Shown here piece by piece: positions 1,211 to 31,481 of a DNA stretch of 64,000 nucleotides (positions are counted from its first letter, which is position 1; each line of letters starts with the position of its first letter). Below the pieces are notes generated by a model. It did no database searches. It was not told the DNA's origin and saw only the letters and a list, made by a program, of their open reading frames with translations. The translations under genes and the position numbers were made by a program. Location of the stretch: contig NC_087391.1 in NCBI RefSeq assembly GCF_963675165.1, positions 4,886,646 through 4,950,645 on the forward strand, given 5' to 3'. The stretch is from Halichondria panicea (lineage: Eukaryota > Porifera > Demospongiae > Suberitida > Halichondriidae).

Positions 1211-2252
1211 ATGAAGTGTATTCAAACTCACAGCCCTCGGACAGAGAACGCATTCCTGTTAGGGTAACAGGAAGGTAAGCCTGAGTACACGTTAATACTA
1301 ATTAATATACGCATACAGAGATATCAAGGAAATGTACAATGATGGACAATATCGGTACCCAGAGGTTCGTTTCCCCGGTGAATTCAGACCCCAGGATCCG
1401 TGGCACAAGAAATGGGTGGACTTCCCAGATGACACTCTCCCAGCAACTATTCCCATTTATCGGTTGGTACACATCACCCACCCCACACAGGCACGACATA
1501 TAGAGCAGGTACCGAACCGTCGATACAAGTTTATTCCGAAAATGAAGTGCGGAAAGTCCTATAACGAAGAGAGAATTGGTGAAACATATGTACACATAGG
1601 TGGTGAAAAGTTTGAGGAAATCACGAGCAAAGACTCAGTGTTTCCAGGCTATCTCTCTTGGTGGGGGATCGATGTGCGAGGCTGGTATGAGGACGGTTGT
1701 CAGCTACTGCAGAGTATCTCAAGGGAGAGAATTAACGGTCGATATGTTCCCGGCTATCTTGCTGCTGAGCCAGAGTCCCCCTATGGCAGTGTAGCATTCA
1801 GTATTGAGCTACCGGACATACTGAGGGATTACAAGAAAGCAAGGAATATACAAGGAGCTAGAGTGTGCTTGAAAGTGGGTGGAACCCTACGATATCGAAA
1901 GGAAATTTGTTATGTGGTCATTGTCTGCTTAAAGGATGATAATGAACTCGGAGACATGCCAAGTATTGCAGGGCCTAAATTCCCTCAATTTGTGTCCAGT
2001 GATCTAGTTGATAGCAATGGGTTTGTGATTGACCACAACAAAGCACCTGAATTCAACGCTACCTCGATTATCAAGTCTGAAATATTAGGCGAGGACCCCA
2101 CTGGAAAAAACATGTACGTTTATGACCACTACAGTTGGGAGCAACTTGTTTTTGCATTCTACTTTCCAACCAGAGGAGAAAATCTTGTGTGTACACAAGT
2201 CACCAAGACAGATTATCAACACTTTGCAAGAAACTGTCAGAAATGCGGTTAG
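1211..2252 (+). CDS. WWGIDV-family protein, subfamily A, copy A1
   Basis: First member of a tandem family. The secure part is the open frame 1332-2252 (306 codons from its first ATG). It carries the family blocks in order: IPIYRLVHITHPTQA, VFPGYLSWWGIDV, RYVPGYL, SPYGSVAFSI, LKVGGTLRYRKEICYVV and YSWEQLVFAFYFP, with a Cys-containing tail (NCQKCG). By comparison with copy A2 a short first exon should precede it. A frame matching the A2 exon (ending RVTG before a GTAAGC donor at 1275) has no ATG, whereas an ATG at 1211 reaches a weaker GTAACA donor at 1264 in the right phase to join an acceptor near 1316. The start is therefore uncertain. There is no signal peptide or membrane segment in the main exon. 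The function is unknown; see findings for a possible ADP-ribosyltransferase-like reading. The gene looks intact from 1332 onward. Confidence 0.75.
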
Positions 2253-2836
2253 ATATTATACTCTACATAGATTGGTTAAAAAATTGTTATGTCCCTATAG
2301 TGCCATGCATACCACGTATACTGTATTTCTCAAAACATGTACAACTATTTTGTATATTTTACACTTGTGAAATCAACTTTGGCTAGCAAAATCTCTGTAT
2401 AATATTATGCTAGGCACAATAGAAACGATGGGTGGTGTTGTATAACATTCAATGTCTAAATTAAGGGATAATCACCGTTCTGGTAACCGCCATCTTTACC
2501 ATAAACATCTCATCCAGCAAATATTTGCATGGTACACATTATCGTGTAAGGACTAATGTCTTGTAACCACTATCTTCAACATCTGGAAAGGGGACAATGT
2601 TCTGTCTAGTATACCGACATCTTCACTATAATATCCAGCTGCCACACATATTCTCGGTACACTGTAGCCACTTATCTTTACCATAATCATCGGCATACAT
2701 CGTAAAGGGACTAGTTCTGGTAACCATGGACTATCTTCACCACTATCTTTACCAAAATCATCCAACCATGCACCAATTATTTGCGAATATCCTTTAAAAG
2801 GGCTAGGCTGAACTGAAACTCAATATCATTACAAGT
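2253..2836. repeat. Intergenic stretch with degenerate repeats upstream of A2
   Basis: From about 2465 to 2770 a phrase like 'ggtaaccactatctttaccataatcat' recurs in four or five diverged copies. Related phrases lie upstream of A1 (about 1065-1110) and of the A3 pseudogene (about 4470-4540), so this is an ancestral 5' flank of subfamily A that has also multiplied internally. No coding exon is supported here. Confidence 0.6.
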
Positions 2837-3948
2837 ATGGCAAGCAATTCTACTAGCCCAGAATCCTCCTCGGACACCTCTGTATTGGAAGACATGGATA
2901 GTTCCCCAGTGATGACAGTGACTGGAAGGTAGGAGAATGTATAGATGATGATAATTATGTGTATAAGCCTCAGCTTATGTTCTATAGGGATATCAAGATA
3001 ATGTACAGACAAAGATGCCCAGAGGTGCTTTTCCGAAACGAATTTGTATCCCGGAATCCATGGGACGATCCAGTTGGCCCACAAACCACGTACTTTCCAG
3101 ACAACCCTCTCCCAGCTACTATTCCAATCAGAAAATTGGTACACATTACCCACCCCACAGAGGCAGGTGGCATTGAGAAAGAGGGAGACTCTCACTTCAA
3201 GTTTATTCCAAGAATGAAGTACGGAAAATCTTATGAGCCTAACCAAGGAGGAGGATACGGTGAAACTTATGAGAAAAAAGCTGATGGAAATTATGAAGAA
3301 ATTCAGTACACAGATTCAGTGTTTCCAGGCTATCTCTCTTGGTGGGGGATCGATGTGCGAGACAGCTGGCATGAAGGTAGGAGCATCGTTTCATGGAATG
3401 AACGTAATGGTCGATATGTTCCCGGCTATCTTGCTACTAAGCCACAGTCCCCCTATGGCAGTGTAGCGTTCAGTATTGAGCTATCGGACATACTGAAGTA
3501 TTACAAGAGAGCAAGGAAGAGCGATCAAGGAGCTGAAGTGTGCTTAAAAGTGGGTGGAACCCTACGATATCGACACGAAATTTGCTATGTGGTCATTGTC
3601 TGCTTAAAGGATGATGAACTCGGAGACATGCCAAGAAGGATTGCAGGACATAAATTCCCTCAATTTGTGTCCAATGGTCTAGTTGACAACAAAGGAATAG
3701 TGATTGACCGCAACATGACACCTGAATTTATAGCTACCAATATTATCAAATCCGCTAGAAACGACAATGGGAAACCCAAGAGAGGACAAAGGTACGCTTG
3801 GGATAACTACAGCTGGGAGCAGCTTGTTTTTGCATTCTACTTTCCAACCGGAGGAGAAAATCTTGTGTGTAAAGGAGTCACCAAAACAAGTTATGAGCAT
3901 TTTGATGAAAATTGTCAGAAATGCAAGAACACTACACCGATGGATTAG
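2837..3948 (+). CDS. WWGIDV-family protein, subfamily A, copy A2
   Basis: Two-exon gene. Exon 1 is 2837-2928 (ATG, Ser/Thr-rich start MASNSTSPESSSDTSV); the intron is 2929-2987 (59 nt, GTAGGA to TAG); exon 2 is 2988-3948. Splicing joins AG+G and gives about 350 residues. The family blocks are VHITHPTEA, FPGYLSWWGIDV, RYVPGYL, SPYGSVAFSI, VGGTLRYRHEICYVV and YSWEQLVFAFYFP, with a C-terminal NCQKCKN. The first exon is acidic and serine-rich and looks disordered. This is the cleanest A gene and defines the gene structure. Its neighbours are paralogues on the same strand. Function unknown; cytoplasmic or nuclear location is likely because no signal peptide is seen. The start is chosen because exon 1 supplies an ATG, a consensus-type donor and the phase needed by exon 2. 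Confidence 0.85.
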
Positions 3949-3981
3949 ATTCGTTATAATTATTATGGGAAATCTGTATTA

Positions 3982-4048
3982 CCATTAGAGTGCAGGATTT
4001 TACCCAACTACAAAATTTGCAGTTGGGTAAAATCCTGCACTCTGATGG
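3982..4048. repeat. Near-perfect hairpin (28-bp arms, 11-nt loop)
   Basis: Left arm 3982-4009 and right arm 4021-4048 are reverse complements with one mismatch. It lies 34 nt after the A2 stop codon. It could be a small MITE remnant or a 3'-UTR structure; no flanking target duplication is obvious. Confidence 0.85.
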
Positions 4049-4577
4049 GTCCATTTGGTAATGATCATTGAATGAAATTTGATCTGAAAATACCTGTGTA
4101 CAATCATGCAGCAATAAGTTGGATAGTCATGCCCTCATGCTGTACTGCTAATAGCATGTCTAATAGAGGGGTGTAGTGTAATCCTCTTATGAGTAATAAA
4201 TTAAGCTATACCACAGATTGAAGAGTTAATTGTCTCCACCCCCTGCATGCATGCAATTGTAGTGTTTTGTACTTGTGAAATCAACTTTGCATGGCGAAAC
4301 AAAATAATATCTATAATTATAGTAAATTCACACAACTTAAAAAGGCAAACTATACATAATTATGATAATAGCTTCTTGTACAATGATATTTCGCAATAGA
4401 AGCGTGACATGATGGGTGTGTTGTTAAGTGCACATACACCTGCTGATTGGCGTGGTTTGGGGGAGGTATCCGTAAGGGACTAAATGGCATGGTAACCACA
4501 ACCATTATCTATACTATATTCATGCGTATCAGCAATATTTAGGCACTCATAGATAAAGCGAAGTGAAGCAAATCAAA
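4049..4577. other. Intergenic stretch, nothing coding seen
   Basis: AT-rich sequence between A2 and the A3 pseudogene. The last ~110 nt resemble the 5' flanks of the other A copies (a 'ggtaaccacaaccattatct' phrase). No exon, RNA gene or satellite is supported. Confidence 0.6.
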
Positions 4578-5441
4578 GCATGGCAAGCCACCTATATTCC
4601 TACTCAGATTCCTGCTCAGACAGCTCTGTTCTTCATTTATCGGTTGGTACACATCACCCACCCCACAGAGGCACGACACATCGAGCAAGTACGAAAACAT
4701 GTACGAAATCGTCAATACAAATTTATTCCAAAAGTGAAATACGGAAAATCTTATCGATATGAAGGAGGATTCGATGAATCTTATGAACACATTGGTGATG
4801 ACACTTTTGAAGAAATTCTACATACAGACTCAGTGTTTCCAGGCTATCTCTCTTGGTGGGGGATCGATGTGCGAGACTGGTATAAGAAGGACGATTGCAA
4901 GCTGCTGCAGAGTATCTCAAGGGAGAGAGTTAATGGTCGATATGTTCCCGGCTATCTTGCTGCTGAGCCAGAGTCCCCCTATGGCAGTGTAGCATTTAGC
5001 ATCAAACTATCGGACATACTGAGCGATTACAAGAAAGCAAGGAATATACGAGGAGCTAGAGTGTGCTTGAAAGTTGCTGGAACTCTACGATATCGAAAGA
5101 AAATTTGCTATGTGGTCTTTGTCTGCTTACAGGATGATGATTAACTCAGTAACATGCCAAGTATTGCAGGGCCTAAATTCTCTCAATTTGTGTCCAATGG
5201 TCTAGTTGACAACAAAGGAATAGTGATTGACTATAACAAAACACCTCGATTCAAAGCTACCTCGATTACCAAGTCTGAAAAAGTAGGCAAGAACCCCATG
5301 GGAGAAAACGAATATGATTGTTACAGTTGGGAGCAACTTGTTTTTGCATTCCACTTTCCAACTGATAGACAAAATCTCGTGTGTACTCGAGTCACCAAGA
5401 CAGATTATGAGCATTTCGAAGAAAAGTGCTCAAAATGCTGA
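4578..5441 (+). pseudogene. WWGIDV-family subfamily A copy A3, broken
   Basis: The start resembles A2 exon 1 (ATGGCAAGC, then a Ser/Asp-rich phrase) but runs directly, without an intron, into sequence that in A1 lies about 40 codons inside exon 2, in the wrong frame. The body (about 4632-5441) reads as a family member: IYRLVHITHPTEA, FPGYLSWWGIDV, RYVPGYL, SPYGSVAFSI, YSWEQLVFAFHFP. One in-frame TAA at 5142-5144 replaces the Glu codon seen in its sisters, after which the same frame resumes (MPSIAGPKF) to a normal C-terminus. With a lost N-terminal block plus a nonsense codon, it is most likely a recent pseudogene, although the rest is well preserved. Confidence 0.75.
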
Positions 5442-5821
5442 GGATTCTAGATTTGCTCAATAATACTATCAGTTAACTGTCTATAATGTACATAACACAC
5501 AGACTATACAGACTACGTATACAGACTATAATGCACACTGATGATTACTCAATGTACCTAAGGCAAGCTACTATATAATTTTATGGTAAAGTAATAATAA
5601 TTAACAAACTGAGACAAAAACATTTCGGTTTTTTGGGAAACTTTTGGTGCATGGCTATTATATACAATTTATACTCAGGATCAGTGGTAAACACTACTTT
5701 TCTATGAATGGCTATATCTACTACACTACTCAGAATATGTGCATAAGTTGGCTCCAAAGGCCACTTTTCTATGAATATTTGTTGGGGAAACTTTTGGCTG
5801 CACTAATCAGACTGAATGAAA

Positions 5822-5900
5822 CCGAAAGGTCATCATGATCTAGCTTGTATAAAGCTTGCATGCATTCACATTTGTGAACACTTGATCTATTAAGATAAAT
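5822..5900 (+). promoter_or_regulatory. Duplicate of the cathepsin L promoter
   Basis: A block containing TATAAA (5848-5853) and the same 5'-UTR phrases as the real cathepsin L gene sits directly before an ATG at 5901. It is nearly identical to 6499-6577, so it could still be transcribed. Confidence 0.65.
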
Positions 5901-6050
5901 ATGGGTAAAGCACTTGTTCTACTGGCACTTGTTTTTGCATTCTACTTTCCAACTGATAGACAAAATCTAGTGTGTACTCAGTCACCAAGACAGATTATGA
6001 GCATTTCGAAGAAAAGTGCTCAAAATGCAGAGGAAATTAGATTTATTTAA
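5901..6050 (+). CDS. Chimeric ORF: cathepsin L signal-peptide start fused to A-family tail
   Basis: A 49-codon ORF. It begins MGKALVLLAL, matching the first ten residues of the nearby cathepsin L ([10 protein letters not shown]) with one change, and continues as VFAFYFPTDRQNLVCT, the C-terminal block of the A3 copy. The last ~23 residues are in a shifted frame relative to A3. The join lies in shared sequence ('acttgtttttgcattc'-like), so microhomology-mediated recombination during duplication is the simple explanation. It has its own copy of the cathepsin promoter and TATA box. The predicted product would be a short, hydrophobic-start peptide. Whether it is expressed or useful is unknown; it may be debris. 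Confidence 0.4.
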   Translation: MGKALVLLALVFAFYFPTDRQNLVCTQSPRQIMSISKKSAQNAEEIRFI

Positions 6051-6521
6051 TTACTCAATAAGGTAGACTATCAGTTAACCCTAAAACACAGGTAAAGTAA
6101 TAATTATTATTAGCAGTAGTCCAAAACTATGTTAAATGTAGACAAAAACATTTCTATGAATGGTTTTTTGGGAAACTTTTGGTGGCTACTATATACAATT
6201 TATACCCAGGATAAGTGGTAAACACTAAATGGTGGGTAGATCTACTATACACTACTCAGAATATGTGCATAAGTTTATTATTAGCAATAGTCCAAAACTA
6301 TGTTAAATGTAGACAAAAACTGAATGGTTTTTTGGGAAACTTTTGGTGGTTACTAGACTATATACAATTTATACCCAGGATAAGTGGTAAACACTAAATG
6401 GTGGGTAGATCTACTACTCAGAATATGTGCATAAGTTGATTAACTGAAAGGCCAATTTTCTATGAATATTTTTGGCTGTACTATAAATGAATGCAAAACT
6501 GAAAGGTCATCATGGTTTAGC

Positions 6522-6577
6522 TTGTATAAAGCTTGCATGCATTCACATTTGTGAACACTTGATCTATTAAGATAAAT
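6522..6577 (+). promoter_or_regulatory. Cathepsin L core promoter and 5' UTR
   Basis: TATAAA at 6525-6530, about 50 nt before the start codon at 6578. The whole block is duplicated at 5845-5900. Confidence 0.65.
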
Positions 6578-7645
6578 ATGGGTAAAGCACTTTTTCTACT
6601 GGCACTTGTGAGCCTGACCGTTGCCCTGGAGAATCCAGAAGATTGGCAAGCTTGGAAGAAGGTACATACGTTCTTGAGCAAACAATTTTTTGCAGCCAAT
6701 ATGCATGCAAATCTAGAAATTGTAATGTTTTATACTTTTACTATAATTATACAGGAGCACAACAAGCAGTACAACGATGTCACGGAGGAGCTGAACAGAC
6801 TGACCATCTGGCAAGAGAACAAAGCTTTTGTGGACGCTCATAATGCAGCAGCTGACAAGCACGGCTTCACTCTTGAGGTCAACAAGTTCTCCGACCTCAC
6901 TAACGTTGAATTCACCAAGACACACAACGGCTATCAAATGTCGGACTTCCCTTCCTCTGCTCGTATGTTTTCTCCAAATCCTCGTTTCCAGCTGCCTTCA
7001 TCTGTCGATTGGCGAGAGAAAGGCTACGTGACAGAGGTAAAAGATCAGAGTCAGTGTGGGGGGTGTTGGGCGTTCAGCGCAACAGGTTCTCTGGAGGGAC
7101 AACACTTCAACAAAACTGGCAAACTAGTCTCATTGAGTGAACAGAATTTGATCGATTGCTCGTCTAATTGGACCAATAATGGTTGTAAGGGTGGAAACGT
7201 ATACAAAGCATTCCAATACATCAAAGACAACGGTGGCATCGATACCGAAAAGAGTTATCCGTACGAAGGGAAAGATGAAATATGCCGATACAGCAAAAAC
7301 AACATTGGAGCAAACTGTACGGGCTATGTAACTTTGAGGAAGGAAGATGAAAACGCTTTAGCTGTGGCATGTGCCTCCATTGGTCCAATCTCAGTCAGTA
7401 TTGATGCCAGTAAGCACAGTTTCCAGAGCTACAGTTCCGGTGTGTACTACGAGCCAATGTGTAACCCTGATGTACGAGACCATGCTGTGCTGGTGGTTGG
7501 TTACGGGACGGAAAACGGCCAAGACTATTGGTTGGTTAAGAACAGCTGGGGCAACGACTGGGGGGAGGAGGGATACATCAAGATGGCTAGAAACAAAGAG
7601 AACAATTGTGGCATAGCTTCTGCAGCTATCTACCCAACTGTGTGA
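6578..7645 (+). CDS. Cathepsin L-like cysteine protease
   Basis: Papain-family (C1A) lysosomal or secreted endopeptidase. Exon 1 is 6578-6661, the intron 6662-6754 (93 nt, GTACAT to ACAG), exon 2 6755-7645; the spliced product is 324 residues, normal for the family. The intron is a multiple of three without stops, so the unspliced frame is also open. Domains: signal peptide (about residues 1-17, [17 protein letters not shown]), I29 propeptide with an ERFNIN-type helix ([11 protein letters not shown]...NRLTIWQEN), then the mature enzyme starting near [13 protein letters not shown]. Catalytic residues are visible: Cys132 in QCGGCWAFS, His271 in [10 protein letters not shown], Asn291 in NSWGNDWG, plus the oxyanion Gln. 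The nucleophile is Cys, so this is a protease and not a silicatein, which has Ser there. It sits between subfamilies A and B, and pieces of its 3' end occur before several B copies. Confidence 0.95.
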
Positions 7646-7841
7646 TAGGAACACACGTCATTACTTTTGAGGACAATTTATTAGTATTGTATCAGGAGTA
7701 CATGAACTCCTGATTGCATGTATATTAATTGTACCATAATAGATGATTGTGTTATATCTTTCTTGATAATTATGCCTCGTTATAACAAGTAAACAAACAA
7801 ATTAAGTACCCTACACTGTATGTAGAGACTACTTAGAAAGA
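7646..7841 (+). other. Cathepsin L 3' flank, template of duplicated B-gene flanks
   Basis: The sequence just after the cathepsin stop (acacgtcattacttttgagg and following) recurs, diverged, before B copies near 10535, 13560, 15335 and 17130. It marks the edge of the ancestral duplication unit. Confidence 0.6.
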
Positions 7842-8078
7842 ATGGCTGAGCGAGCTGACATTATAAGACTGAAGAGAGTAAGAGTGTGTGTGGTATATAC
7901 TATATATACATGCACACAAGTAACAATGATTGACAATGTACGTAATCAGACACTGCACGGCATGGAGTTGCTGAGTCTCTTATACTATAGAGCATTGCAC
8001 GTTCCTTTACATAGAGCAACAACAATTATTATTGTAAGCACAAATAACAGACTATACTTCTAGCTTGGCCTTATAGTT

Positions 8079-8165
8079 TCAGTTATTAGTCATTAATTAG
8101 TTATTAGTTAGTTATTGTTATTAGTTATTAGTTATTAGTTATTAGTTATTGTTATTAGTTAGTTT
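8079..8165. repeat. ttagttatta microsatellite
   Basis: Irregular tandem copies of ttagttatta in what was the first intron of the dead B1 copy. Confidence 0.9.
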
Positions 8166-8474
8166 TGGTAGAGTACGTACATACCGATGACCACAGTTTA
8201 CACATAAGGTTCTACTCTATTTGTACTGTGTGTGTTCATCATGTAAGCCTAACTATATACAATCACAGGTACTTCAAACCCCTCGGAAGTAAGAGGTGCA
8301 TGCAAGCACTACAAGGTTCTGGTACCTAATGAGTTCACCCCCAAACAACCCTGGGGAAACTTCCCTCAAGACAAGTGGGATGAAGTATATAGCTACCTTA
8401 AAAAGAAAGTGCGGCCTTGGATGGGCTCCGGAGCTGTAGTGGGTGGCCGGGAAACCGGCGGTGGCCAGCTCACT

Positions 8475-8800
8475 TCCTGTCTGTCTTTCATTAGTCAGCA
8501 GCACTGTCTACCTTTCATTACGTAGCAGCCCTGCTACCTTTCATTAGGTAGCAGCACCTGTCTGTCTTTCATTAGTCAGCAGCACTGTCTACCTTTCATT
8601 ACGTAGCAGCCCTGTTACCTTTCATTAGGTAGCAGCACCTACTGTCTTTCATTAGTCAGTAGCCTGTCTACCTTTCATTACGTAGCAGCCCTACTACACT
8701 GTGGTTAGTAGCACCTACTGTCTTTCATTAGTCAGCAGCCCTGGTACCTTTGATTAGGTACGTAGCAGCACCTACTACTTTTCATTAAGGCAGTAGCAAA
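8475..8800. repeat. Satellite of 'ctttcattaNgtagcagc' subunits
   Basis: About a dozen subunits of roughly 26 bp built on 'ctttcatta(c/g)gtagcagc', arranged in higher-order units of about 80 bp (three to four copies). Preceded by a short GC-rich block (8405-8470) unlike its surroundings. It lies inside the dead B1 gene. Confidence 0.85.
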
Positions 8801-8948
8801 CAGTTTATTTTTTAAACAATCCATCCAATTCTGCACAAAGTACTTCTTGGAAAGGAACACGGTATAGGTCCACGCATACCGTATCTAATAGAAAGTGAAG
8901 TTTTGTGCACACTTTAAAGACAAACTCTATTTTGTGACATTCACTTTT

Positions 8949-9725
8949 ATTACGAGTGTTGCAAGCTGCGCTGTGCTAATGCCTCTCGCCATGTTATGCT
9001 TTCGCTCAAAAAGCATTAGCACCGGGGGTATTAGAGTGTTACTATAATGAATTTTACTTACTGAGAAGAAAATACTTATTTACATGTCTATTATTGCCTA
9101 TTGTACGCCTCGAGGCATAATAATACAGAAACAGCATAATAATTTTTTACATGTCTATAGTACATGGAAATAGATAGCATGTACATGTACGTATAAATCA
9201 ATGACTGTTCAGTTCGGCAGAGTAAAAGTGGGTGTGGTTTGCTCTAACTGACACACCCAGAGCCGGCCGTGTTAGGCGAGGGGTGCACTGGAAGATGTCA
9301 ACGGGGTCAATTGTTCAGGTGGGAAAGTGGGTGTCGCTTGAGAGAGAATATTGGAAACACAGTGGAGTAAACGAGATACGACCGCTAGACCATACCTGTG
9401 TGTGTGCGTGGGTGTGTGTGTGGGTATGTGTATTATGTGTGTGCGTGGGTGGGATTGTGTGTGTGTGCTCACGATAACTAGGAGTGCTCCCTCAGTATAG
9501 CCAGGCTTGAAGGACACCGTCAAGGGGACTTCCCCCTCTTGACCGCGCATGAACCAAGATACTCCACTGTTATAACGAGTGTTGCACGCTTGCTAATGCC
9601 TCTCGCCATGTTATGCTTTCGCTCAAAAAGTATTAGTGTTATAGTAGTTTCTATAACGAATTTTACATTAAAGTTAGCTTATCTCACTGAGAAGAAAATA
9701 CTTATTTACATGCATCTATTGTCAG
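8949..9725. repeat. Direct repeats of an unclassified dispersed element
   Basis: Two related ~140-bp segments in the same orientation (8951-9088 and 9573-9712) share 'acgagtgttgca', 'tgctaatgcctctcgccatg', 'ttatgctttcgctcaaaaag' and 'gagaagaaaatacttattta'. A third, weaker copy lies near 9830-9870. The palindrome-bearing phrase 'acgcctcgaggcataata' occurs at about 9105 and 10153. No protein is recognisable, so the class is unknown. The segment between the direct repeats holds a GT-rich microsatellite (9400-9470). Confidence 0.55.
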
Positions 9726-10039
9726 TTGTTATCTATTGGCTTACCAGTACCAGGACCTCAAGAAAGAAGAAAATTGATTCTTCCATGCAGGATCAGGAGT
9801 TCAGTGTATATAACATGATAATATCTATCATAACTGAGAAGAAAAGACTTGTGTACTTGCATATGGCTAAGGTTATCTATATTAATTTGTTATATGGTAG
9901 GGTTTTGTGGCTTACCAGGCCCTTAAGATTCTGCCAGGAGAATCTGGATCTTGGATATTATTTTCTCACACATGGGGAATGAGCACGCATGCATGCGCAT
10001 TACATCCAATCCACGAATCAAAATCCAAGAGAACGTGGC

Positions 10040-10110
10040 TAGAAGCCTATGAAGCTGTTAGTTTTCGTCGCATTGCAACCGTTGAGCAGTTACAGCTGGA
10101 ACAGACACAC
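10040..10110. repeat. Dispersed repeat shared with a CFAP69 intron
   Basis: About 50 nt around 'gaagctgttagttttcgtcg' match the reverse complement of 38088-38140 in a CFAP69 intron, with few changes. An (AC)n run follows at 10105-10122. This is a mobile or formerly mobile family, class unknown. Confidence 0.65.
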
Positions 10111-10793
10111 ACACACACACACAGAGTCAGCTTTACCGTATCCCTCGTGCGGCTACGCCTCGAGGCATAATAAAGAGATAAAGCTAAAAGCTATATAATG
10201 GTGGACACAGACATGTTGAAAGTGAACATTTTAAGTTAATTTGGCAGTCGAGCCCTGTGTTCCCGGGTTATCTATCGTGGTCGGGAATTAATCGATGACA
10301 AACTAAAGAAGTATGCAGATTATGAATCCACACACAAAGTTATTATTAGGTGGGAGGACATTAGTTCAACGGAGCAACTAGTGTTTGTACTCTATTTCCT
10401 CAACCCATGCAGAGCAAGAGCTCACTTGCCAAAAGGAGTTATAGTTCAAACCAGTTTAGTGGACCTTAGCTTTATCAACTCAGAGAGACAAGTATAGAAA
10501 TACGTAAATCCAGGCAGGCAGATACTACTATGATTTTACATGATACTTTTGAGGACAATTAATTTGCCCACTGTCATGTTGTACCATACAATTTAATATA
10601 GGTAGACTATGTAATGCTTAATTGAATGCTATATATAAATGAGCAATTAATTTGTACTGATATTCATTGCCCATTTGTTGTACCATATATAGATACGACT
10701 ATGTAATGAATGCTATATATAGATAATCATGGGCTATAATAAGAAAGAGAAAGAATGGTGTGTGTGCATGTACATGTGTGTGTACATATTAGA

Positions 10794-12215
10794 ATGGCTG
10801 AGCAAGCTGAAATTAAGACTGGAGAGTAAGATTGTTGCACACATCAGATGCTGGAGTTTGTAGAATCTGTGCAATTTAGCTCAGAGCGTTGCATGTTCCA
10901 CCAACATGATTAGTTGCAAAGGACTATTTACAGATACTGCACTGCTAGCCTCGATTCCAGGCCACATTAAAACACGTATTTTTATCGGCCTGGAATCGAG
11001 GCTAGCAGTACTGCTAGCTATATAGGCACCTAGTGTATACATATAAACAATGACACGCTTACACTGATGCACTTTATGATCTATTCTGTCAATGTTACAA
11101 ATTATGTACTTTGCAGACTTGTATACTGTGTGTGTTCATCATGTGTAAACCTAACTATATACAATCACAGGTACTTCAAACACCTTGGAAGTAAGAGGTG
11201 CAAGTACTACGAGGTTCTGATACCTAACGAGTTCACCCCCAAACAACCCTGGGGAAGCTTCCCTCAAGACAAGTGGGATGAAGTAGGAGAATGCTACCCA
11301 GAGCACTTGCGAAAAACTCCTAACTTCACTACACACATCCCCATATATCGTGTATCCCACATGACACATGATGAGTCAGCAAGGAGCATCGGTTCTACAT
11401 TACCACAAGGCTACTACACATTCAAGACAAGGGCCAGACTAGGGAAACAAGGTGATCTAACTTGGGACGAGACTACAAGCTACGGTGGAGCTTCATTAGG
11501 AGAGACATACAAGCAACTTGAAAGTGGAGAATTCGAGCTACTCCAACGATCAGAAGCGAGCCCTGTGTTCCCAGGTTATCTATCGTGGTGGGGAATCGAT
11601 GTCAAGCCATTTTATAACACACAGGAGGGAAATGAATTATGTGAAAATATTAACGATATCCAGAAGAACAGACTGTACTATGTGCCTGGCTATCTAAATG
11701 AGCGAGCAAGTTCCATCTACGGCAACAACTCCTACAGTCTAGCATTTCCTGACCTACTTACCAGCTATCAAACAGCGAGAGACGATAAGCCTAGGGGTGA
11801 AATTCAGCTTAAAGTCGGAGGAACTTTATTGTATAAGCAAGAAATTTGCTACGTAGTCATGGTTGGTCTAGAAGGAGACAAAAAGCTTCGATCAATGCCT
11901 TCTATGGGGGATTACGAGTACTTCAGTCCCTTCCAACACAAGGGACTCATTAATTCCGAAGGAGTCGTCATCGATCAACAAAAAACACCGAATTTCAGAG
12001 CATTATGTATCGTTAGCAGTTTTAAGGACATTAAGTTCAACTGGGAGCAACTAGTATTTGCACTCTATTTCCCCAACCCAGAGCAAGAGCTCACTTGCCA
12101 AAAGGAGTTAGTTCAAACCAGTTCTGTGGACCACCATAAATTCTGCATTTCTACGCAACCACCCCCTAATGGAGGAAAATGGGTGTGTCCAAACAAACTT
12201 TCAAGAGAACTATAG
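10794..12215 (+). CDS. WWGIDV-family protein, subfamily B, copy B2
   Basis: Exon 1 10794-10825 (MAEQAEIKTG plus two bases), intron 10826-11170 (345 nt, GTAAGA to CACAG), exon 2 11171-12215; the spliced product is about 358 residues. Family blocks: NEFTPKQPWGSFPQDKWDE, IPIYRVSHMTHDESA, ASPVFPGYLSWWGIDV, YYVPGYL, YGNNSYSLAFPDLLTSYQTA, LKVGGTLLYKQEICYVVMV, FNWEQLVFALYFP and a Cys-containing tail ending in KWVCPNKLSREL. An open reading into the intron would add residues before YFKHLG, but the splice phase and the conserved exon 1 in sister copies favour the two-exon model. The intron contains a 23-bp-arm inverted repeat, absent from the shorter introns of B3 and B5. Function unknown; no signal peptide. 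Confidence 0.87.
10941..11009. repeat. Inverted repeat (23-bp arms) in B2 intron
   Basis: Arms 10941-10963 and 10987-11009 are exact reverse complements around 'gctagcctcgattccaggcc'; the spacer is 23 nt. It is present only in the longer intron of B2, which suggests a small MITE insertion. Confidence 0.85.
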
Positions 12216-12499
12216 AATCCACATACTATTTTTACTAAATTAAAATTACAAATGTATGAGTGTAAATGTGTTTGGTACATATTATACTTTAATTGTCATT
12301 GTCTTGTGTATCATCTGTGCTTTATGCATGTTGACCTACTGACTATAGGCAGGGATGCATTGAGGGGGGGCAAGAGAGTAATTCTCCCCCCCCCCCCAGG
12401 ATCTGGCAGATTCATTATAGTAATTAAGCATTAATTTGTGCTGCTATAATTATGATAACTTGTGAGCTGAAATTGCACTAGAATCGATCTAAGGCCCTC
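12216..12499. other. Intergenic stretch, nothing coding seen
   Basis: B2 3' flank with a poly-G run at 12364-12370 and a poly-C run around 12386-12398. No exon or RNA gene is supported. Confidence 0.6.
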
Positions 12500-12900
12500 A
12501 AATATTCAAGTACGGCTTAAAGTTGGAGGAACCCTATTGCATGCATGTACATGAAATTTGCTATGTAGTCATGGTTGGTCTAGAAGGAGACGAAGAGCTC
12601 CAATTAATGCCTTCTATGGGGGATTTCAAGTACTTTAGTCTTTTCCAGCACAAGGGACTCATTAATTCAAAAGCCGGCTATACAACAAAAAGGACTGGTT
12701 GTAAGGATAATAAGTTCAACAGGGAGCTACTATAATAGTGTTTGCCCCAAATCAGAGCAACAGCTCACTTGCAGGCCAAAAGAAGTTAGTTGAAACAAGT
12801 TCAGTGGAACATAACTTCTGCCTTTATAAGCAACCACCCCCTAACGGGGATAAATGGGTGTGTCCAAACAACCCAAAGGAAAAGCATGTATGGAAATAGA
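12500..12900 (+). pseudogene. Subfamily B fragment (C-terminal third), broken
   Basis: Begins in the LKVGG(T) block, then EICYVVMVGLEGDEELQLMPS, MGDFKYFSLFQHKGLINS, a damaged middle, and a tail matching the QELTCQ and KWVCPNNPK regions. Small insertions and a stop break the frame. Its downstream ~1.3 kb is nearly identical to 16160-17505, so both were copied as one segment. Confidence 0.8.
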
Positions 12901-13083
12901 TACATAATAGACTAAATTACAAGTGTGTGAGTAATATAAATGACCATAATTATATATATATATATACATGATTTATTTCATCGATCTGTTTCATCTGTGC
13001 TGTTTAGTACATTCTGACTATATGACCGCTCGTTTAGCCATTACTCTTGCTAGCGTCGTACACTGATATGTATGTATGTGCAT

Positions 13084-13125
13084 AAACACGCCTCTGTTTG
13101 TTTATAAACAAACAGAGGCGTGTTT
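13084..13125. repeat. Perfect 42-bp palindrome
   Basis: The two 21-nt halves (aaacacgcctctgtttgttta and its exact complement) meet without a spacer. Each half is the upstream phrase 'cagaggcgtgtttgtg' of B genes, so the palindrome is an inversion junction between head-to-head copies. A decayed relative lies at about 16646-16688. Confidence 0.95.
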
Positions 13126-13149
13126 GTGTTGTTGTGTTAGTTGAAAACT

Positions 13150-13345
13150 ATAGTTTTCTTCTGGATAACGTTAATGTTTTCACATAATTCATTTCCCTCC
13201 TGTGTGTTATAAAATGGCTTGACATCGATTCCCCACCACGATAGATAACCCGGGAACACAGGGCTTGCTTCTGATCGTTGGAGTAGCTCGAATTCTCCAC
13301 TTTCAAGTTGCTTGTATGTCTCTCCTATAATGAAGCCCCACCGTA
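13150..13345 (-). pseudogene. Inverted subfamily B exon 2 fragment
   Basis: On the minus strand it encodes part of exon 2 from the YGGASLGETYKQLESGEFEL block through ASPVFPGYLSWWGIDVKPF to the NELCENIN region, closest to B2. It has no flanking gene parts. A second copy is at 16735-16922. Confidence 0.85.
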
Positions 13346-13364
13346 GCTGTTCATCTGTGCTGTT

Positions 13365-13640
13365 TGCATTTCCTGACCTACTGACGAAGTATTAGGTGGC
13401 GGGCGTTGGAGCCGTATCGTGCAAGCAAGAAATTTGCTACATAGTTATGGTTGGGACAAAGAGCTCATATCAATGCCTTCTACGAGGGATTACAAGTATT
13501 GCAGTCCCTATACTACCCAACCAACAGCAGAGAGTATGATGTCATTAGTTTGCCCTAAAATTAAAGGGATACATCAAGATGGCTAGAAGCAAGGAAAACA
13601 ATTGAGCTTCAGAAGCCATCCACTCACTGAGTGCTAAGAA
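13365..13640 (+). pseudogene. Chimeric debris: subfamily B piece joined to cathepsin L 3' end
   Basis: Begins with 'gcatttcctgacctactgac' (the FPDLLT block), then a CYIVMVG-like phrase and 'caatgccttctacgaggga' (MPS block). It then passes to 'gggatacatcaagatggcta', matching the cathepsin L codons [12 protein letters not shown]. Sister copies are at 15060-15345 and 16925-17200. Dead. Confidence 0.75.
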
Positions 13641-13726
13641 GACATACTTGTACGTATATTCATTGCATATTGTTGTACCATAAAAATAGGTATGATTGTG
13701 TAATGCTTGATTGAACAAACTAAAGA

Positions 13727-13746
13727 GAGGCGTGTTTGTGTACATA
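13727..13746 (+). promoter_or_regulatory. Conserved element upstream of B genes
   Basis: The 20-mer gaggcgtgtttgtgtacata lies 29 nt before the B3 start codon and recurs exactly before B5 (17291-17310) and with one change before the dead B4 (15447-15466). A TATA-like run follows it. It is the same phrase found in the palindrome at 13084. A core-promoter role is inferred. Confidence 0.4.
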
Positions 13747-13775
13747 AGTATATATATACAACGCTAGCAAGAGTA

Positions 13776-14965
13776 ATGGCTGAGCAAGCTGACATTAAGA
13801 CTGGAAAGTAAGTTTGTACATGATATATAGGAATGTGTGTAGTCGGGTCAGCATCACTATTCATTGGTACACATTGGGATACTACTGAACTGTGTGTTCA
13901 ATCATGTATGACATTGTGTACAACAACTTATAATATCACAGGTACTTCAAAACCCTCTTGGATGAGAAACACAAGTACAAGCGCTACGAGGTTTTGATAC
14001 CTAATGAGTTCACCCCCAAACAACCCTGGGGAAGCTTCCCTCAAGACAAGTGGGATAAAGTAGGAGAATGCTACCCAGAGCACTTGCGGAAAACTCCTAA
14101 CTTCACTACACACATCCCCATATATCGTGTATCACACATGACACATGACAAGCCAGCAAGGAGCATTGATTCTACATTACCACAAGGCTACTACACATTC
14201 AAGCCAAAGGCCAGACTAGGAAAACAAGGGGATCTAGGGGGACCAGTCACTCGGGGTGAGACTATAAGCTACGGTGGAGCATTAGGAGAGACATACAAGC
14301 AACTTGAAAGTGGAGAATTCGAGTTACTTCACCGATCAGAAGCAAGCCCTGTGTTCCCGGGTTATCTATCTTGGTGGGGAATCGATGTCAAAGAGACACA
14401 GGAGGGAAGAGAATTAACGTCTCAAATCAAGAGGAGCAAATGCTATGTGCCTGGTTATCTAAATGATCCAGAAACTTCGATGTACGGCAACAACTCCTAC
14501 AGCATAAAATTTTCTGACCTACTGACCAGCTATCAGACAGCGAGAAGCGACAAGCCTGGGGGTGAAGTACAGCTTAAAATTGGAGGAACTTTATTGTACA
14601 AGCAAAAAATTTGCTATGTAGTGATGGTTGGTCTAGAAGAAGACGAAGAGCTCCAATCAATGCCTTCTATTGGGAATTACGAGAACGAGTACTTCAGTCC
14701 CTTCCAACACAATGGGCTTATTAATTCGAAAGGAGTAATCATCAATCCACATAAAGTACCGAATTTCAGAGCATTCTTTATCGTTAGCAGTTGGGAGAAC
14801 AAAAAGTTCAACTGGGAGGAACTAGTGTTTGCACTCTATTTCCCCAACCCAGAGCAAGAGCTCACTTGCCAAAAGGAGTTAGTTCAAACTAGTTCAGTGG
14901 AACATACATTCTGCCATTATAAGCAACCAATTCAAAACTATGGTAAATGGGCGTGTCCAAACTAG
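13776..14965 (+). CDS. WWGIDV-family protein, subfamily B, copy B3
   Basis: Exon 1 13776-13807 (MAEQADIKTG plus AA), intron 13808-13941 (134 nt, GTAAGT to CACAG), exon 2 13942-14965; the joined codon AAG begins the phrase KYFKTLLDEKHKYK and the product is about 351 residues. The same blocks as B2 are present: PNEFTPKQPWGSFPQDKWD, IPIYRVSHMTHDKPA, ASPVFPGYLSWWGIDV, CYVPGYL, YGNNSYSIKFSDLLTSYQTA, LKIGGTLLYKQKICYVVMV and FNWEELVFALYFP. Starting translation inside exon 2 would need a TTG, so the spliced start is preferred. A short indel region after WWGIDV (loss of the KPFY phrase) separates it from B2 and B5. Intact; function unknown. Confidence 0.88.
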
Positions 14966-15059
14966 AGAAGAAGTGTAGATAATTAATAACGCATATATAT
15001 ATTTTTTTGGCATTGCTGAGTACATACATTGCTATTATCATGTGTTTTATTTGAGGTGT

Positions 15060-15345
15060 TTGCATTTCCTGACCTACTGACTATATAGGTATAAAGAAGC
15101 TAATAAGCCTGGGTGTAACATTTAGGAGGATTATAAGCAGGAGATTTGATACATATAGTCATGGTTGGTCTAGAAGGGACAAAGAGCTCAGTAGTGCGGT
15201 TTCTAACTACCCAATACAACAGTGGAGAGTATGATGTCGATAGTTTGTAAAAGGGATACATCTCAAGTGGCTATAGAAACAAAGAGAACAATATTGTGGC
15301 ATACTGGCTTCTGCAGCTATCTACCCAACTGTGTGATAGGAACAC
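15060..15345 (+). pseudogene. Chimeric debris: subfamily B piece joined to cathepsin L 3' end
   Basis: Same composition as 13365-13640: a FPDLLT-block relic, a VMVGLEG-like phrase, then the last ~30 codons of cathepsin L ([17 protein letters not shown]) with small indels, its stop codon and the following 3' flank. Here the cathepsin piece is longer and extends through 'ccaactgtgtgataggaaca'. Confidence 0.8.
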
Positions 15346-15504
15346 ATGTCATTACTTTTGAGACAATATAATACGTATATTCTTTTTATATTGTACCATA
15401 AACAGGATGATTATGTAATGCTTATTGAAACTAAACAAATTAAACAGAGGCGTGTTTGTGTACATGCATACATATGTACCAGTATACGACGCTAGCAATT
15501 AGAG

Positions 15505-16440
15505 TGATGGCTAAACAACAATTTAATGCCACAGGTACTTCAAAACCAAGTAGGGAAAACAGTATACAAGTTTTACGAGGTTCTGATACTTAATGAGTTC
15601 ACCTCCAAACAACCCTGCATGGGGAAGCTTCCCTCAAGATAAGTGGGATGAAGTATATAGAAAAATGCTACCTAAAAAACTTGCAGAAACATCCTCATAT
15701 CCCTATATATACCCAAAACACTACGGAAAAATCCTAAAATTACTATACACATCCCATAATGAGCCAGCAAGGAACATCGCCATAGGGCTACTACACATTT
15801 AAGCTAAGGGCCAGACTAGGAAAACAAGTCTTATATAGATAAAGCTAAAAGCTATATAATGGTGGACACAGACATATTGAAAGTGAAAATTTGAGTTACT
15901 TCGGCAGTCAAACTCTGTGTTCCCGGGTTATCTATCGTGGTGGGGAATTGATCTTAAACCATTTTATGAGACACCAGAGGGAAGATAAGCATGGTTTTCT
16001 CAGTATAAATGAGCCAGAATCTTCAATATGCGGCAATTAATTCGGAAGAAGTATGCATGATCATGAATCCACATACTATCAGGTGGGAGGACATTAGTTC
16101 AACGGAGCAACTATAGTGTTTGCACTAAATCTCCCCACCCAAAAATTTGCTACGTATAGTTATGCGATCAATGCCTTCTATGGGGGATTACGAGTACTTC
16201 AGTCTTTTCCAGCACAAGGGACTCATTAATTCGAAAGGATATACAACAAAAAGCACTGGTTGTAAGAATAATAAGTTCAACAGGGAGCTACTATATAATA
16301 GTGTTTGCCCCAAATCATAGCAACAGCTCACTTGCATGCCAAAAGAAGTTAGTTGAAACAAGTTCAGTGGAACATAACTTCTGCTTTATAAGCAACCACC
16401 CCCTAACGGGGATAAATGGGTGTGTCCAAACAACCCAAAG
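15505..16440 (+). pseudogene. WWGIDV-family subfamily B copy B4, broken
   Basis: A decayed exon 1 (atggctaaacaa) is followed after only ~20 nt by an acceptor-like 'gccacag' at about 15533 and exon 2 homology: FYEVLI(L)NEFT, KQPxWGSFPQDKWDEV, then frame-broken YPYIYP, THNEPARNI, and a GYYTF-like phrase to about 15830. After a large internal loss, phrases of the FPGYLSWWGID block occur near 15920-15960, and C-terminal blocks near 16150-16440. Many frame breaks; clearly dead. Confidence 0.82.
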
Positions 16441-16734
16441 GAAAAGCAAGTATGGAAATAGATACATAGACTAAATTACAAGTGTGTGAGTAATATAAAT
16501 GACCATAATTATATATATATATATACATGATTTATTTCATCGATCTGTTTCATCTGTGCTGTTTAGTACATTCTGACTATATATGACCGCTCGTTTAGCC
16601 ATTACTCTTGCTAGCGTCGTACACTGATATGTATGTATGTGCATAAACACGCCTCTGTTTGTTTATAAACCAAACATAGGCGTGTTTGTGTTGTTGTGTT
16701 AGTTGAAAACTATATAAATATAGTTTTCTTCTGG

Positions 16735-17200
16735 ATAACGTTAATGTTTTCACATAATTCATTTCCCTCCTGTTTGTTATAAAATGGCTTGACATCGATT
16801 CCCCACCACGATAGATAACCCGGGAACACAGGGCTTGCTTCTGATCGTTGGAGTAGCTCGAATTCTCCACTTTCAAGCTGCTTGTATGTCTCTCCTAATG
16901 AAGCCCCACCGTAGCTGTTCATGTGCTGTTTGCATTTCCTGACCTACTGACAAAATATTAGGTGGCGGGCGTTGGAGCCGTATCGTGCAAGCAAGAAATT
17001 TGCTACATAGTTATGGTTGGGACAAAGAGCTCATATCAATGCCTTCTACGAGGGATTACAAGTATTGCAGTCCCTATACTACCCAACCAACAGCAGAGAG
17101 TATGATGTCATTAGTTTGCCCTAAAATTAAAGGGATACATCAAGATGGCTAGAAACAAGGAAAACAATTGAGCTTCAGAAGCCATCCACTCACTGAGTGC
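16735..17200. pseudogene. Second copy of inverted B fragment plus chimeric debris
   Basis: 16735-16922 on the minus strand repeats the inverted exon 2 fragment at 13150-13345. 16925-17200 on the plus strand repeats the B-piece/cathepsin debris of 13365-13640. Order and spacing match, so this is one segmental duplication carrying the upstream region of a B gene. Confidence 0.85.
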
Positions 17201-17339
17201 TAGGAAGACATAATTGTACGTATATTCATTGCGTATTGTTGTACCATAAATAGGTATGATTGTGTAATGCTTAATTAAACAAACTAAAGAGAGGCGTGTT
17301 TGTGTACATAAGTATATATATACAACGCTAGCAAGAGTA

Positions 17340-18553
17340 ATGGCTGAGCAAGCTGACATTAAGACTGGAAAGTAAGTTTGTACATGGTATATAGGAATGT
17401 GTGTAGTGGGGTCAGCATCACTATTCATTGGTACACATTGGGATACTACTGAATTGTGTGTTCAATCATGTATGACATTGTGTACAACAACTCATAATAT
17501 CACAGGTACTTCAAAACCCTCTTGGATGAGAAGTTTAAGTACTACGAGGTTCTGATACCTAACGAGTTCACCCCCAAACAACCCTGGGGAAGCTTCCCTC
17601 AAGACAAGTGGGATGAACTAAGTGACCTAGGAGCTCGAGGGCAATGCTACCCAGAATGCTTACTGAACAGTGATGCTGACCCCACTACACACATCCCTAT
17701 ATATCGTGTATCCCATATTACACATGATGAGCCAGCAAACAGCATCGATTCTACATTGCCACAAGGCTACTACACGTTCAAGACAAGGGCCAGACTAGGA
17801 AAACAAGGGAATCTAACTTGGGACGAGGCTACAAGCTACGGTGGAGCATTAGGAGAAACATACAAACGAATTGGAAAAGACAGATTTGAGCAACTCCAGC
17901 GATCAGAAGCGAGCCCTGTGTTCCCGGGTTATCTATCGTGGTGGGGAATCGATGTCAAGCCATTTTATGAGAAACAGAAGGGCAGAAGATTGAATTCTCA
18001 TATTAACGATATCAAGAGGAAAAGCTACTATGTGCCTGACTATCTAAAGGATAAGCCAAGTTCAATGTACGGCAACAACTCCTACAGTATAACATTTCCT
18101 GACCTACTGACCAGCTATCAGACAGCGAGAGACGATAAGCCTGGGCGTAAAGTACAGCTTAAAGTAGGAGGAACTTTATTGTATAAGCAGGAAATTTGCT
18201 ACGTAGTGATGGTTGGTCTAGAAGGAGACGAAGAGCTCAGATCAATGCCTTCTATCGGGGATTACAAACAATTCCAACACAATGGGCTTATTAATTCTGA
18301 AGGAGTAATCATCAATCCACATAAAACACCGAATTTCAAAGCATTTTTTATCGTTAGCAGTTGGGAGAATGAAAAGTTCAACTGGGAGCAACTAGTGTTC
18401 ACACTGTATTTCCCCAAACCAGAGCAAAAGCTCAGTTGCCAAAAGGAGCTAGTTCAAACCAGTTCTGTGGACCATACGCTCTGCATTTCTACTCAACCAC
18501 CCCCTAATGGAGGAAAATGGGTGTGTCCAAACAAACTTTCAAGAGAAAAATAA
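17340..18553 (+). CDS. WWGIDV-family protein, subfamily B, copy B5
   Basis: Exon 1 17340-17371, intron 17372-17505 (134 nt, GTAAGT to CACAG), exon 2 17506-18553; about 359 residues. Exon 1 and the intron are nearly identical to those of B3, whereas exon 2 shares features with both B2 (KPFYEKQ, tail KWVCPNKLSRE) and B3 (YFKTLLDEK start), a pattern expected from gene conversion. Blocks: NEFTPKQPWGSFPQDKWDE, IPIYRVSHITHDEPA, ASPVFPGYLSWWGIDV, YYVPDYL (Gly to Asp), YGNNSYSITFPDLLTSYQTA, LKVGGTLLYKQEICYVVMV and FNWEQLVFTLYFP. Intact. It is convergent with NEMF, whose stop codon lies about 105 nt beyond. Confidence 0.88.
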
Positions 18554-28147: not shown

Positions 28148-28359
28148 TATAAAACAGCATGAGTTAGGCCACCTCAGATATCAAACAACCTTCAAGCCTG
28201 GACTACTGTGATTTCAAGAAACAACATCTCCTCAAAAACTGTTCAAGGTGATTTTAACTTTTCATTCATTCATTCAGTCAGTTCAAATTGAATGACAAAT
28301 TATACCGTAGACCTACAAATCTTTATGTGAATTTGCCTCTACTTCTATTATTTTGCAGA
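28148..28359 (+). promoter_or_regulatory. Crystallin copy 1 core promoter and 5'-UTR intron
   Basis: TATAAAA at 28148-28154. A probable non-coding first exon ends CAAG before GTGATT at 28248; the intron ends TTTTGCAG at 28358, two bases before the ATG. The same arrangement occurs in copies 2 (TATAAAA 30775-30781) and 3 (34993-34999). Confidence 0.7.
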
Positions 28360-28875
28360 ATGGCCGCGATTGTCCTGTACGAGCACGCTGGGTATGCTGG
28401 CAAGAGCCTTCCCCTGACCTCTGCAACCCCCGACCTCACTCTTCGCAGCTTCAACGACAAAGTTTCTTCCATTGAGGTCAAGAGTGGTATGTGGACTGTC
28501 TTCCAGCACGTCAATTACGAAGGGAAAAGGCTCACCCTAAGAATGGGAAAGTACGACATCGAGTACATTACCAAGAACCTGGGAAACGATGTCATCTCTT
28601 CAGCTAGACCTGCTGAAATAATCCTGTATCAGAATGCCCGGTTCCAAGGTAAAACCCTCAAGTTGAGCGTTGATACTCAGAGCTTGGTTCCAGAGGGTTT
28701 TAACGACATGGTCTCCTCTATTGAGGTTACTTGGGGCGATTGGACGGTGTACCAACACATCGACTACAAAGGAAAGAGTCTTGACCTGAAGGTCGGAAGG
28801 TATGACATGGACTTCATCACCAAGAATATGGGGAACGATGTCATCTCCTCTGTGAGACTGACACCAAGTGCTTGA
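28360..28875 (+). CDS. Beta-gamma crystallin, copy 1
   Basis: 171-residue protein of two beta-gamma crystallin domains (about residues 3-84 and 86-168), each with two Greek-key motifs. All four calcium-site signatures of the N/D-N/D-x-x-S-S type are present: NDKVSS (32-37), NDVISS (76-81), NDMVSS (115-120) and NDVISS (159-164), so this is a calcium-binding crystallin like those of microbes, sponges and tunicates rather than a vertebrate lens type. The ATG at 28360 is chosen because a good 3' splice site ends directly before it; the upstream in-frame ATG lies in the intron. There is no signal peptide. The coding region is a single exon. The gene lies within the partial CFAP69 duplicate on the opposite strand. 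Confidence 0.93.
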   Translation: MAAIVLYEHAGYAGKSLPLTSATPDLTLRSFNDKVSSIEVKSGMWTVFQHVNYEGKRLTLRMGKYDIEYITKNLGNDVISSARPAEIILYQNARFQGKTLKLSVDTQSLVPEGFNDMVSSIEVTWGDWTVYQHIDYKGKSLDLKVGRYDMDFITKNMGNDVISSVRLTPSA

Positions 28876-30965: not shown

Positions 30966-31481
30966 ATGGCCGCGATTGTCCTGTACGAGCACGCTGGGTA
31001 TGCTGGCAAGAGCCTTCCCCTGACCTCTGCAACCCCCGACCTCACTCTTCGCAGCTTCAACGACAAAGTTTCTTCCATTGAGGTCAAGAGTGGTATGTGG
31101 ACTGTCTTCCAGCATGTCAATTACGAAGGGAAAAGCCTCACCCTAAGAATGGGAAAGTACGACATCGAGTACATTACCAAGAACCTGGGAAACGATGTCA
31201 TCTCTTCAGCTAGACCTGCTGAAATAATCCTGTATCAGAATGCCCGGTTCCAAGGTAAAACCCTCAAGTTGAGCGTTGATACTCAGAGCTTGGTTCCAGA
31301 GGGTTTTAACGACATGGTCTCCTCTATTGAGGTTACTTGGGGCGATTGGACGGTGTACCAACACGTTGACTACAAAGGAAAGAGTCTTGATCTGAAGGTC
31401 GGAAGGTATGACATGGACTTCATCACCAAGAATATGGGGAACGATGTCATCTCCTCTGTGAGACTGACACCAAGTGCTTGA
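30966..31481 (+). CDS. Beta-gamma crystallin, copy 2
   Basis: 171 residues, almost identical to copy 1; visible differences include EGKSLTL for EGKRLTL and QHVDYKGK for QHIDYKGK. All four NDxxSS calcium motifs are intact. The promoter (TATAAAA 30775-30781), non-coding exon and 5'-UTR intron are conserved. It lies between the CFAP69 partial duplicate and a second set of CFAP69 exon copies. Copies this close in sequence imply recent duplication or continuing gene conversion, and all three look able to be expressed. Confidence 0.93.
   Translation: MAAIVLYEHAGYAGKSLPLTSATPDLTLRSFNDKVSSIEVKSGMWTVFQHVNYEGKSLTLRMGKYDIEYITKNLGNDVISSARPAEIILYQNARFQGKTLKLSVDTQSLVPEGFNDMVSSIEVTWGDWTVYQHVDYKGKSLDLKVGRYDMDFITKNMGNDVISSVRLTPSA

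What the first reader, a model, noticed from the sequence alone, without database searches (positions are those of the whole stretch)
1211..18553. Tandem array of an uncharacterised 'WWGIDV' protein family with two subfamilies
Five likely intact two-exon genes (A1, A2, B2, B3, B5) and at least three dead copies share six blocks: IPIYR(L/V)xH(I/M)TH, FPGYLSWWGIDV, YVPGYL, YG(S/N)xxxSI, LKVGGTLxYxxEICYVV and F/Y-x-WEQLVFxxYFP. I cannot assign a known function. Tandem expansion, rapid turnover and presumed gene conversion are typical of defence, recognition or toxin-related families. From memory, unnamed fish and cnidarian proteins have a similar 'LxxxETxLxKQEVMYTVLVH'-like block; this needs checking.
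Basis: partly seen in the sequence, partly recalled or inferred. Interest (0 to 1): 0.85.

Follow-up and report, generated by a model that had tools for sequence, protein, structure and literature searches.

The report
Unnamed gene array resembling ADP-ribosyltransferases
A cluster of look-alike genes in what is probably a sponge genome makes proteins that match no catalogued family, and their predicted shape and conserved residues hint that they are very divergent relatives of enzymes that tag other molecules with ADP-ribose.

Summary
Five intact two-exon genes (A1, A2, B2, B3, B5; A1's start is uncertain) lie in 1211-18553 with relics of further copies and two antisense exon fragments that the finding does not mention. 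The family is real: 92 proteins were found, 4 of them this genome's own, none with a precomputed Pfam domain. Four protein searches found one more intact frame in the genome, 3.4 Mb away. Pattern scans of prokaryote genomes and viral contigs gave no relative. Pfam, NCBIfam, PHROGs and PADLOC give no credible match.

Best reading: a divergent, cytosolic ART-like family that turns over by unequal crossing-over. Enzyme activity and a defence role are inferred. New variant of a known kind; interest 0.55.

The parts
1211..1263 (+).
   Evidence: joins in frame to exon 2 with donor GTAACA; the alternative donor at 1275 matches A2's exon-1 frame but has no ATG
1319..2252 (+). A1 exon 2, whole conserved domain and stop
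2837..2928 (+). A2 exon 1 (31 residues with the split codon, no hydrophobic stretch)
   Evidence: donor GTAGGA
2988..3948 (+). A2 exon 2
4580..5441 (+). A3, dead copy: exon-1 start joined out of frame to the middle of exon 2; stop TAA at 5142-5144
7843..8386 (+). B-type relic: exon-1-like stretch (by eye) and a broken start of exon 2
10240..10497 (+). B-type relic of exon 2
   Evidence: repeat D9
10794..10825 (+). B2 exon 1 (MAEQAEIKTG)
   Evidence: donor GTAAGA, intron 345 nt
11171..12215 (+). B2 exon 2
12493..12900 (+). B-type relic, 3' part of exon 2
   Evidence: (D4, D15)
13156..13327 (-). inverted fragment of B exon 2, 98% complementary to B2
   Evidence: (I2)
13776..13807 (+). B3 exon 1 (MAEQADIKTG)
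   Evidence: donor GTAAGT, intron 134 nt
13942..14965 (+). B3 exon 2; the only one of 84 aligned rows with K at position 220 (dead A3, not among the 84, also has K)
15507..16460 (+). B4, dead copy with many stops (start by eye)
16726..16916 (-). second copy of the inverted B fragment, carried in the duplicated unit, 96% complementary to B2
   Evidence: I1
17340..17371 (+). B5 exon 1
17506..18553 (+). B5 exon 2; the query used for structure model 1
12703..13912 (+). duplicated unit upstream of B3 (97-99% identical to 16264-17476)
16264..17476 (+). duplicated unit upstream of B5

Best explanation
The array encodes soluble, probably cytosolic one-domain proteins of about 330-360 residues that are very divergent members of the ADP-ribosyltransferase (ART) fold, H-Y-E side. 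Proposed working: NAD+ is held by H61-x-T63 in strand beta-1 and by the helix behind it. An aromatic residue (F/Y184) on the strand before helix 188-198 packs on the nicotinamide. E285 at the start of the WEQLVF strand polarises the ribose, and ADP-ribose passes to a target set by variable stretches (residues 31-45, 151-165 and 256-285 among B-type proteins). The conserved SWWGI strand and a C-terminal H-C-C cluster (H314, C317, C331), perhaps zinc-holding, are features of this family. Copies multiply and die by unequal crossing-over between tandem units. A role in defence is a guess from that turnover. Shown: genes, family, copy history, confident models, conserved residues, the only VIA-align matches being ARTs. 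Inferred: triad roles, zinc, catalysis, target, defence.
Confidence: 0.5

Rival explanations
1. ART-fold pseudoenzymes: the domain binds NAD+, ADP-ribose or a partner but transfers nothing, as proposed for LRRC9.
For: The putative glutamate is lost in 6 of 81 rows (4 of them to S, A or G) while the rest of the domain stays conserved. The abstract of PMC7955679 describes such a divergent, probably inactive ART-like family with an immune flavour. E220 is K in B3 although its frame is intact.
Against: H61 and T63 are near-invariant and E285 is kept in all five window genes and 75 of 81 rows.
Confidence: 0.2
2. A new fold or a fold unrelated to ARTs; the ART matches are a by-product of a split beta-sheet with helices, and the true active site is around SWWG, R199 and E220.
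For: No Foldseek match, low Z, no profile support; the most invariant residues are not the proposed ART ones.
Against: All nine VIA-align rows over two models are ARTs of four kinds, and the order H-x-T, aromatic, E and the 101-residue aromatic-to-E spacing fit (89 in DarT2 by the residue numbers; 96 in PARP2 by recall).
Confidence: 0.22
3. An ordinary enzyme or structural family with no defence role, whose array simply grows and shrinks by unequal crossing-over. (Not exclusive of the ART reading: it concerns the role.)
For: Only seven full or nearly full copies were found in the genome, one of them dead; dN/dS below 1 in all four pairs that could be computed; no known domain is fused to any of the proteins scanned.
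Against: B-type relics (four, two with exon-1-like starts) outnumber the three intact B copies; ten other contigs seem to bear two or more members (equal contig lengths); B-type proteins differ most in a few stretches.
Confidence: 0.3

Closest known systems
DarT (PF14487; DarT1 8baq, DarT2 7omw)
   Different: No profile similarity; R51 of DarT2 has no proven counterpart; no PF14487 match in this genome; about 130 residues longer than the 209-residue DarT2, with the SWWGI strand
PARP / ARTD catalytic domain (PF00644; PARP2 6tx3, 5dsy)
   Different: No Pfam or hhalign match; the genome has its own PARP-profile matches, 56 exon-level, 55 over the cut-off
OspC3 / CopC ADP-riboxanases
   Different: rmsd 5.6-6.8, 9-11% identity over the aligned part; bacterial effectors; their sequences were not fetched
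LRRC9 ART-like domain (PMC7955679, abstract)
   Same: Another uncharacterised eukaryotic family put among the ARTs by remote evidence, perhaps in innate immunity
   Different: That domain lies between leucine-rich repeats; these are one-domain proteins
Fish Gig2 / PARP-like antiviral genes (recalled)
   Same: PARP-related multigene family in animals
   Different: Recalled only, not tested

Membership tests
ART superfamily | ART fold (six-stranded core sheet, helices after beta-1 and beta-2) | tested here: inconclusive
ART superfamily | H (or R) in beta-1 contacting NAD, with a T/S two residues on | tested here: met
   as a motif: H61 68 of 69, T63 73 of 75 rows, in predicted strand 58-63 before helix 65-72; contact with NAD is inferred
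ART superfamily | aromatic (Y) in the second triad position, strand before helix | tested here: inconclusive
   F 71, Y 13 of 84 at position 184, strand 182-187 then helix 188-198; the assignment is by order and context only
ART superfamily | catalytic Glu (or D/Q) at the start of beta-5 | tested here: inconclusive
   E285 75 of 81, D 2 of 81; E220 is an alternative (83 of 84)
ART superfamily | NAD+ binding and ADP-ribose transfer | not testable with these tools
   needs protein
PARP family PF00644 | match to the PARP profile | tested here: not met
   (35 and 65 members scanned); hhalign probability 0.1-0.2%
DarT PF14487 | match to the DarT profile | tested here: not met
   no match in 65 members; hhalign probability 0.0-0.4%
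Known anti-phage defence families (PADLOC) | match to a PADLOC model | tested here: not met
   0 of 8 proteins
Animal immune multigene family | induction by infection, allele diversity | not testable with these tools
   no transcripts or populations on hand

The most novel reading that the evidence does not exclude
An animal-only class of mono-ADP-ribosyltransferases with the DarT-like HITH NAD grip, a family-specific SWWGI strand and a zinc-capped C-terminus, kept as fast-turning tandem arrays that act as intracellular immune effectors, perhaps on nucleic acids as DarT does.
Probability: 0.12. Interest if true: 0.85.

Novelty: new variant of a known kind. Interest (0 to 1): 0.55.

Why it matters
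A family of at least 92 proteins with strongly conserved residues matches no family of Pfam, NCBIfam, PHROGs or PADLOC in the members scanned, and its SWWGI motif is in no held paper. If it is an ART family, it adds a new branch of NAD+-using proteins, probably in an early animal lineage, and a defined triad to test. If it is not, a confidently modelled domain of about 300 residues lacks a recognised fold. Either way the array, with intact, dead and inverted copies side by side, is a compact case of gene birth and death.

Tried and rejected
Pfam, NCBIfam, PHROGs, PADLOC: only sub-threshold chance hits. PDB by sequence: chance hits for B5, and the profile gave only a pectate lyase at E 1.1. Prokaryote genomes: 29 pattern stretches, 0 relatives; viral contigs: 17 stretches, 0 relatives; both scans need a conserved peptide pattern, so distant relatives could be missed. 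PARP kinship by profile: no support with 10 domains from the same genome. DarT kinship by profile: no support with 74 of 80 fetched loci; the 6 without the [YFW][HY]x[TA][HP]-type motif that I used to trim were dropped. Foldseek on both models in PDB, and on model 1 in viral models: nothing. In the intron count 32 rows were listed and 18 flagged by a loose rule; I leave out P0018, P0061, P0064, P0077, P0078 and P0086, where the search word fell inside the domain, and recounted the other 26: 15 read Arg and 4 Ser at the junction; P0014's flag was spurious. Variability among B-type rows counted gaps of three truncated rows as differences; the recount without gaps keeps the same stretches among the 9 rows, but among the three window genes only 151-165 stands out. 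Papers: searches; no paper on this family was listed. I saw the abstract and section list of PMC7955679, passages of PMC8195603, PMC11543638 and PMC9967889, and listings only of the rest. The sponge origin is inferred from memory (small genome, beta/gamma-crystallin genes); the crystallin search listed no sponge structure and does not prove it.
Full report
Observation. The window is G000:C15:4886646-4950645 of a 131-Mb, 39-contig genome. With their splice sites, five are intact: A1 328, A2 350, B2 358, B3 351 and B5 359 residues. The second exon carries the whole domain; the first adds only a short start (MAEQADIKTG in B3 and B5; MASNSTSPESSSDTS... in A2) without a hydrophobic signal, so the products are probably cytosolic. 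A1's start is uncertain. A3 has lost its exon junction and has a TAA at 5142. Further relics lie at 7843-8386, 10240-10497, 12493-12900 and about 15507-16460, with a scrap at about 15072-15200 seen by eye.

Turnover. B3 and B5 sit in units that are 97-99% identical over eight successive 150-base windows (12703-13912 against 16264-17476), but only 73-93% in the seven windows from 13913 on, which hold exon 2. One exchange with a breakpoint near the start of exon 2 explains this better than simple divergence. The unit also carries an inverted piece of exon 2 (172 bases, 98% complementary to B2; second copy 191 bases, 96%). Between copies dN/dS is 0.41-0.50 (B2, B3, B5) and 0.68 (A1-A2) by NG86, and 0.58-0.72 and 0.88 by YN00; A-B pairs are saturated and gave no value. 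This is weak purifying selection, with no sign of positive selection over the whole length.

Family and spread. Two searches with B5 and its alignment gave 88 proteins, and one with the seventh copy 4 more; 92 in all, 4 of them (P0001, P0004, P0026, P0034) matching the window's own genes. The tables show a precomputed Pfam domain for none of the 92. In this genome four protein searches found, besides the array, one intact frame at C15:1522616-1523650 (346 residues, 32% identical) and a fragment beside it; the tool calls such counts lower bounds. Pattern scans of prokaryote genomes and viral contigs gave no relative. The 85-row tree puts A and B in separate supported clades, each with members from other sources. 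By equal length of the longest contig, taken as the same contig, ten contigs hold two to five members each (26 of the 92 proteins; for the short ones equal length may be chance). The 653,027-base one holds both B-side (P0008, P0012) and A-side (P0029, P0033, P0040) members, so a linked A/B cluster seems old. Of 26 frames that reach upstream of the domain (one of them A2 itself), 15 read an Arg codon, and 4 a Ser, where the AG acceptor would be read through, and 7 show no such junction; this suggests a widely conserved intron and eukaryotic genes. That the organism is a sponge is inference.

Residues. In 84 rows (gaps set aside): H61 68 of 69, T63 73 of 75, H64 75 of 75, S135 82 of 83, W136 83 of 83, W137 84 of 84, aromatic 184 84 of 84, Y195, R199, T214 and Y217 84 of 84, E220 83 of 84 (K in B3), D232 83 of 84, E285 75 of 81 (D 2, S 2, A 1, G 1), H314 79 of 81, C317 80 of 82, C331 80 of 80. 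DarT2 (Thermus sp. 2.9) binds NAD ribose with H13, T15 and N19, nicotinamide with I14 and Y71, and needs R51 and E160 (PMC9967889, passages); DarT1 needs E152 (PMC11543638, passages). The DarT2-type sequence fetched here reads PIYHITHIDNL and KQAEFLVY, and the PDB chain has A at that Glu. Here the blocks are IPIYRVSHITH in strand 58-63 before helix 65-72, YGNNSYSITF before helix 188-198, and WEQLVF at the start of strand 284-293. The aromatic-to-Glu distance is 101 here against 89 in DarT2; the aromatic lies farther from H (123 against 58) because of the inserted hairpin, the SWWGI strand and helices.

Limits. The sequence does not prove the kinship: hhalign against 10 PARP domains of this genome gave probability 0.1-0.2%, and against 74 DarT proteins 0.0-0.4% depending on settings (12 runs). 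In the one DarT alignment printed, HxTH lies on HITH, but the putative Glu strands are not matched. Under the stated rule this is not filed as a PARP or a DarT. It is filed as ART-like, with the fold test inconclusive.

Verdict. The most likely reading is a divergent ART-fold family; an inactive ART-like binder, another fold, or an ordinary gene family remain live rivals.

Noticed in passing
window 6563-7645 (+): An uninterrupted cathepsin-type cysteine protease with I29 propeptide (Pfam Peptidase_C1 E 1.8e-84) sits between the A and B parts of the array.
   Followed up: partly
window 28258-28875, 30885-31481, 35143-35703 (+): Three nearly identical beta/gamma-crystallin frames in tandem (Pfam Crystall, E about 1e-34).
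   Followed up: partly
window 13156-13327 and 16726-16916 (-): Inverted pieces of B exon 2, 98% and 96% complementary to B2, lie in the duplicated unit upstream of B3 and B5; transcripts could pair with sense mRNA.
   Followed up: no
G000:C15:692184-770253 and other places: The genome has 56 exon-level PARP-profile matches (55 over the cut-off), 18 of them in one stretch of the contig that holds the array.
   Followed up: no
window 8476-8766 (+): Short imperfect tandem repeat (unit about 81 bases) where a B-type relic is cut off.
   Followed up: no
window 36874-37778 (-): Two exon-like frames of a cilia- and flagella-associated protein 69 gene (Pfam CFA69_ARM_rpt).
   Followed up: no
G000:C15:1521594-1521984 (-): A broken fragment of the family beside the distant seventh copy, so that locus too has duplicated and lost a copy.
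   Followed up: partly
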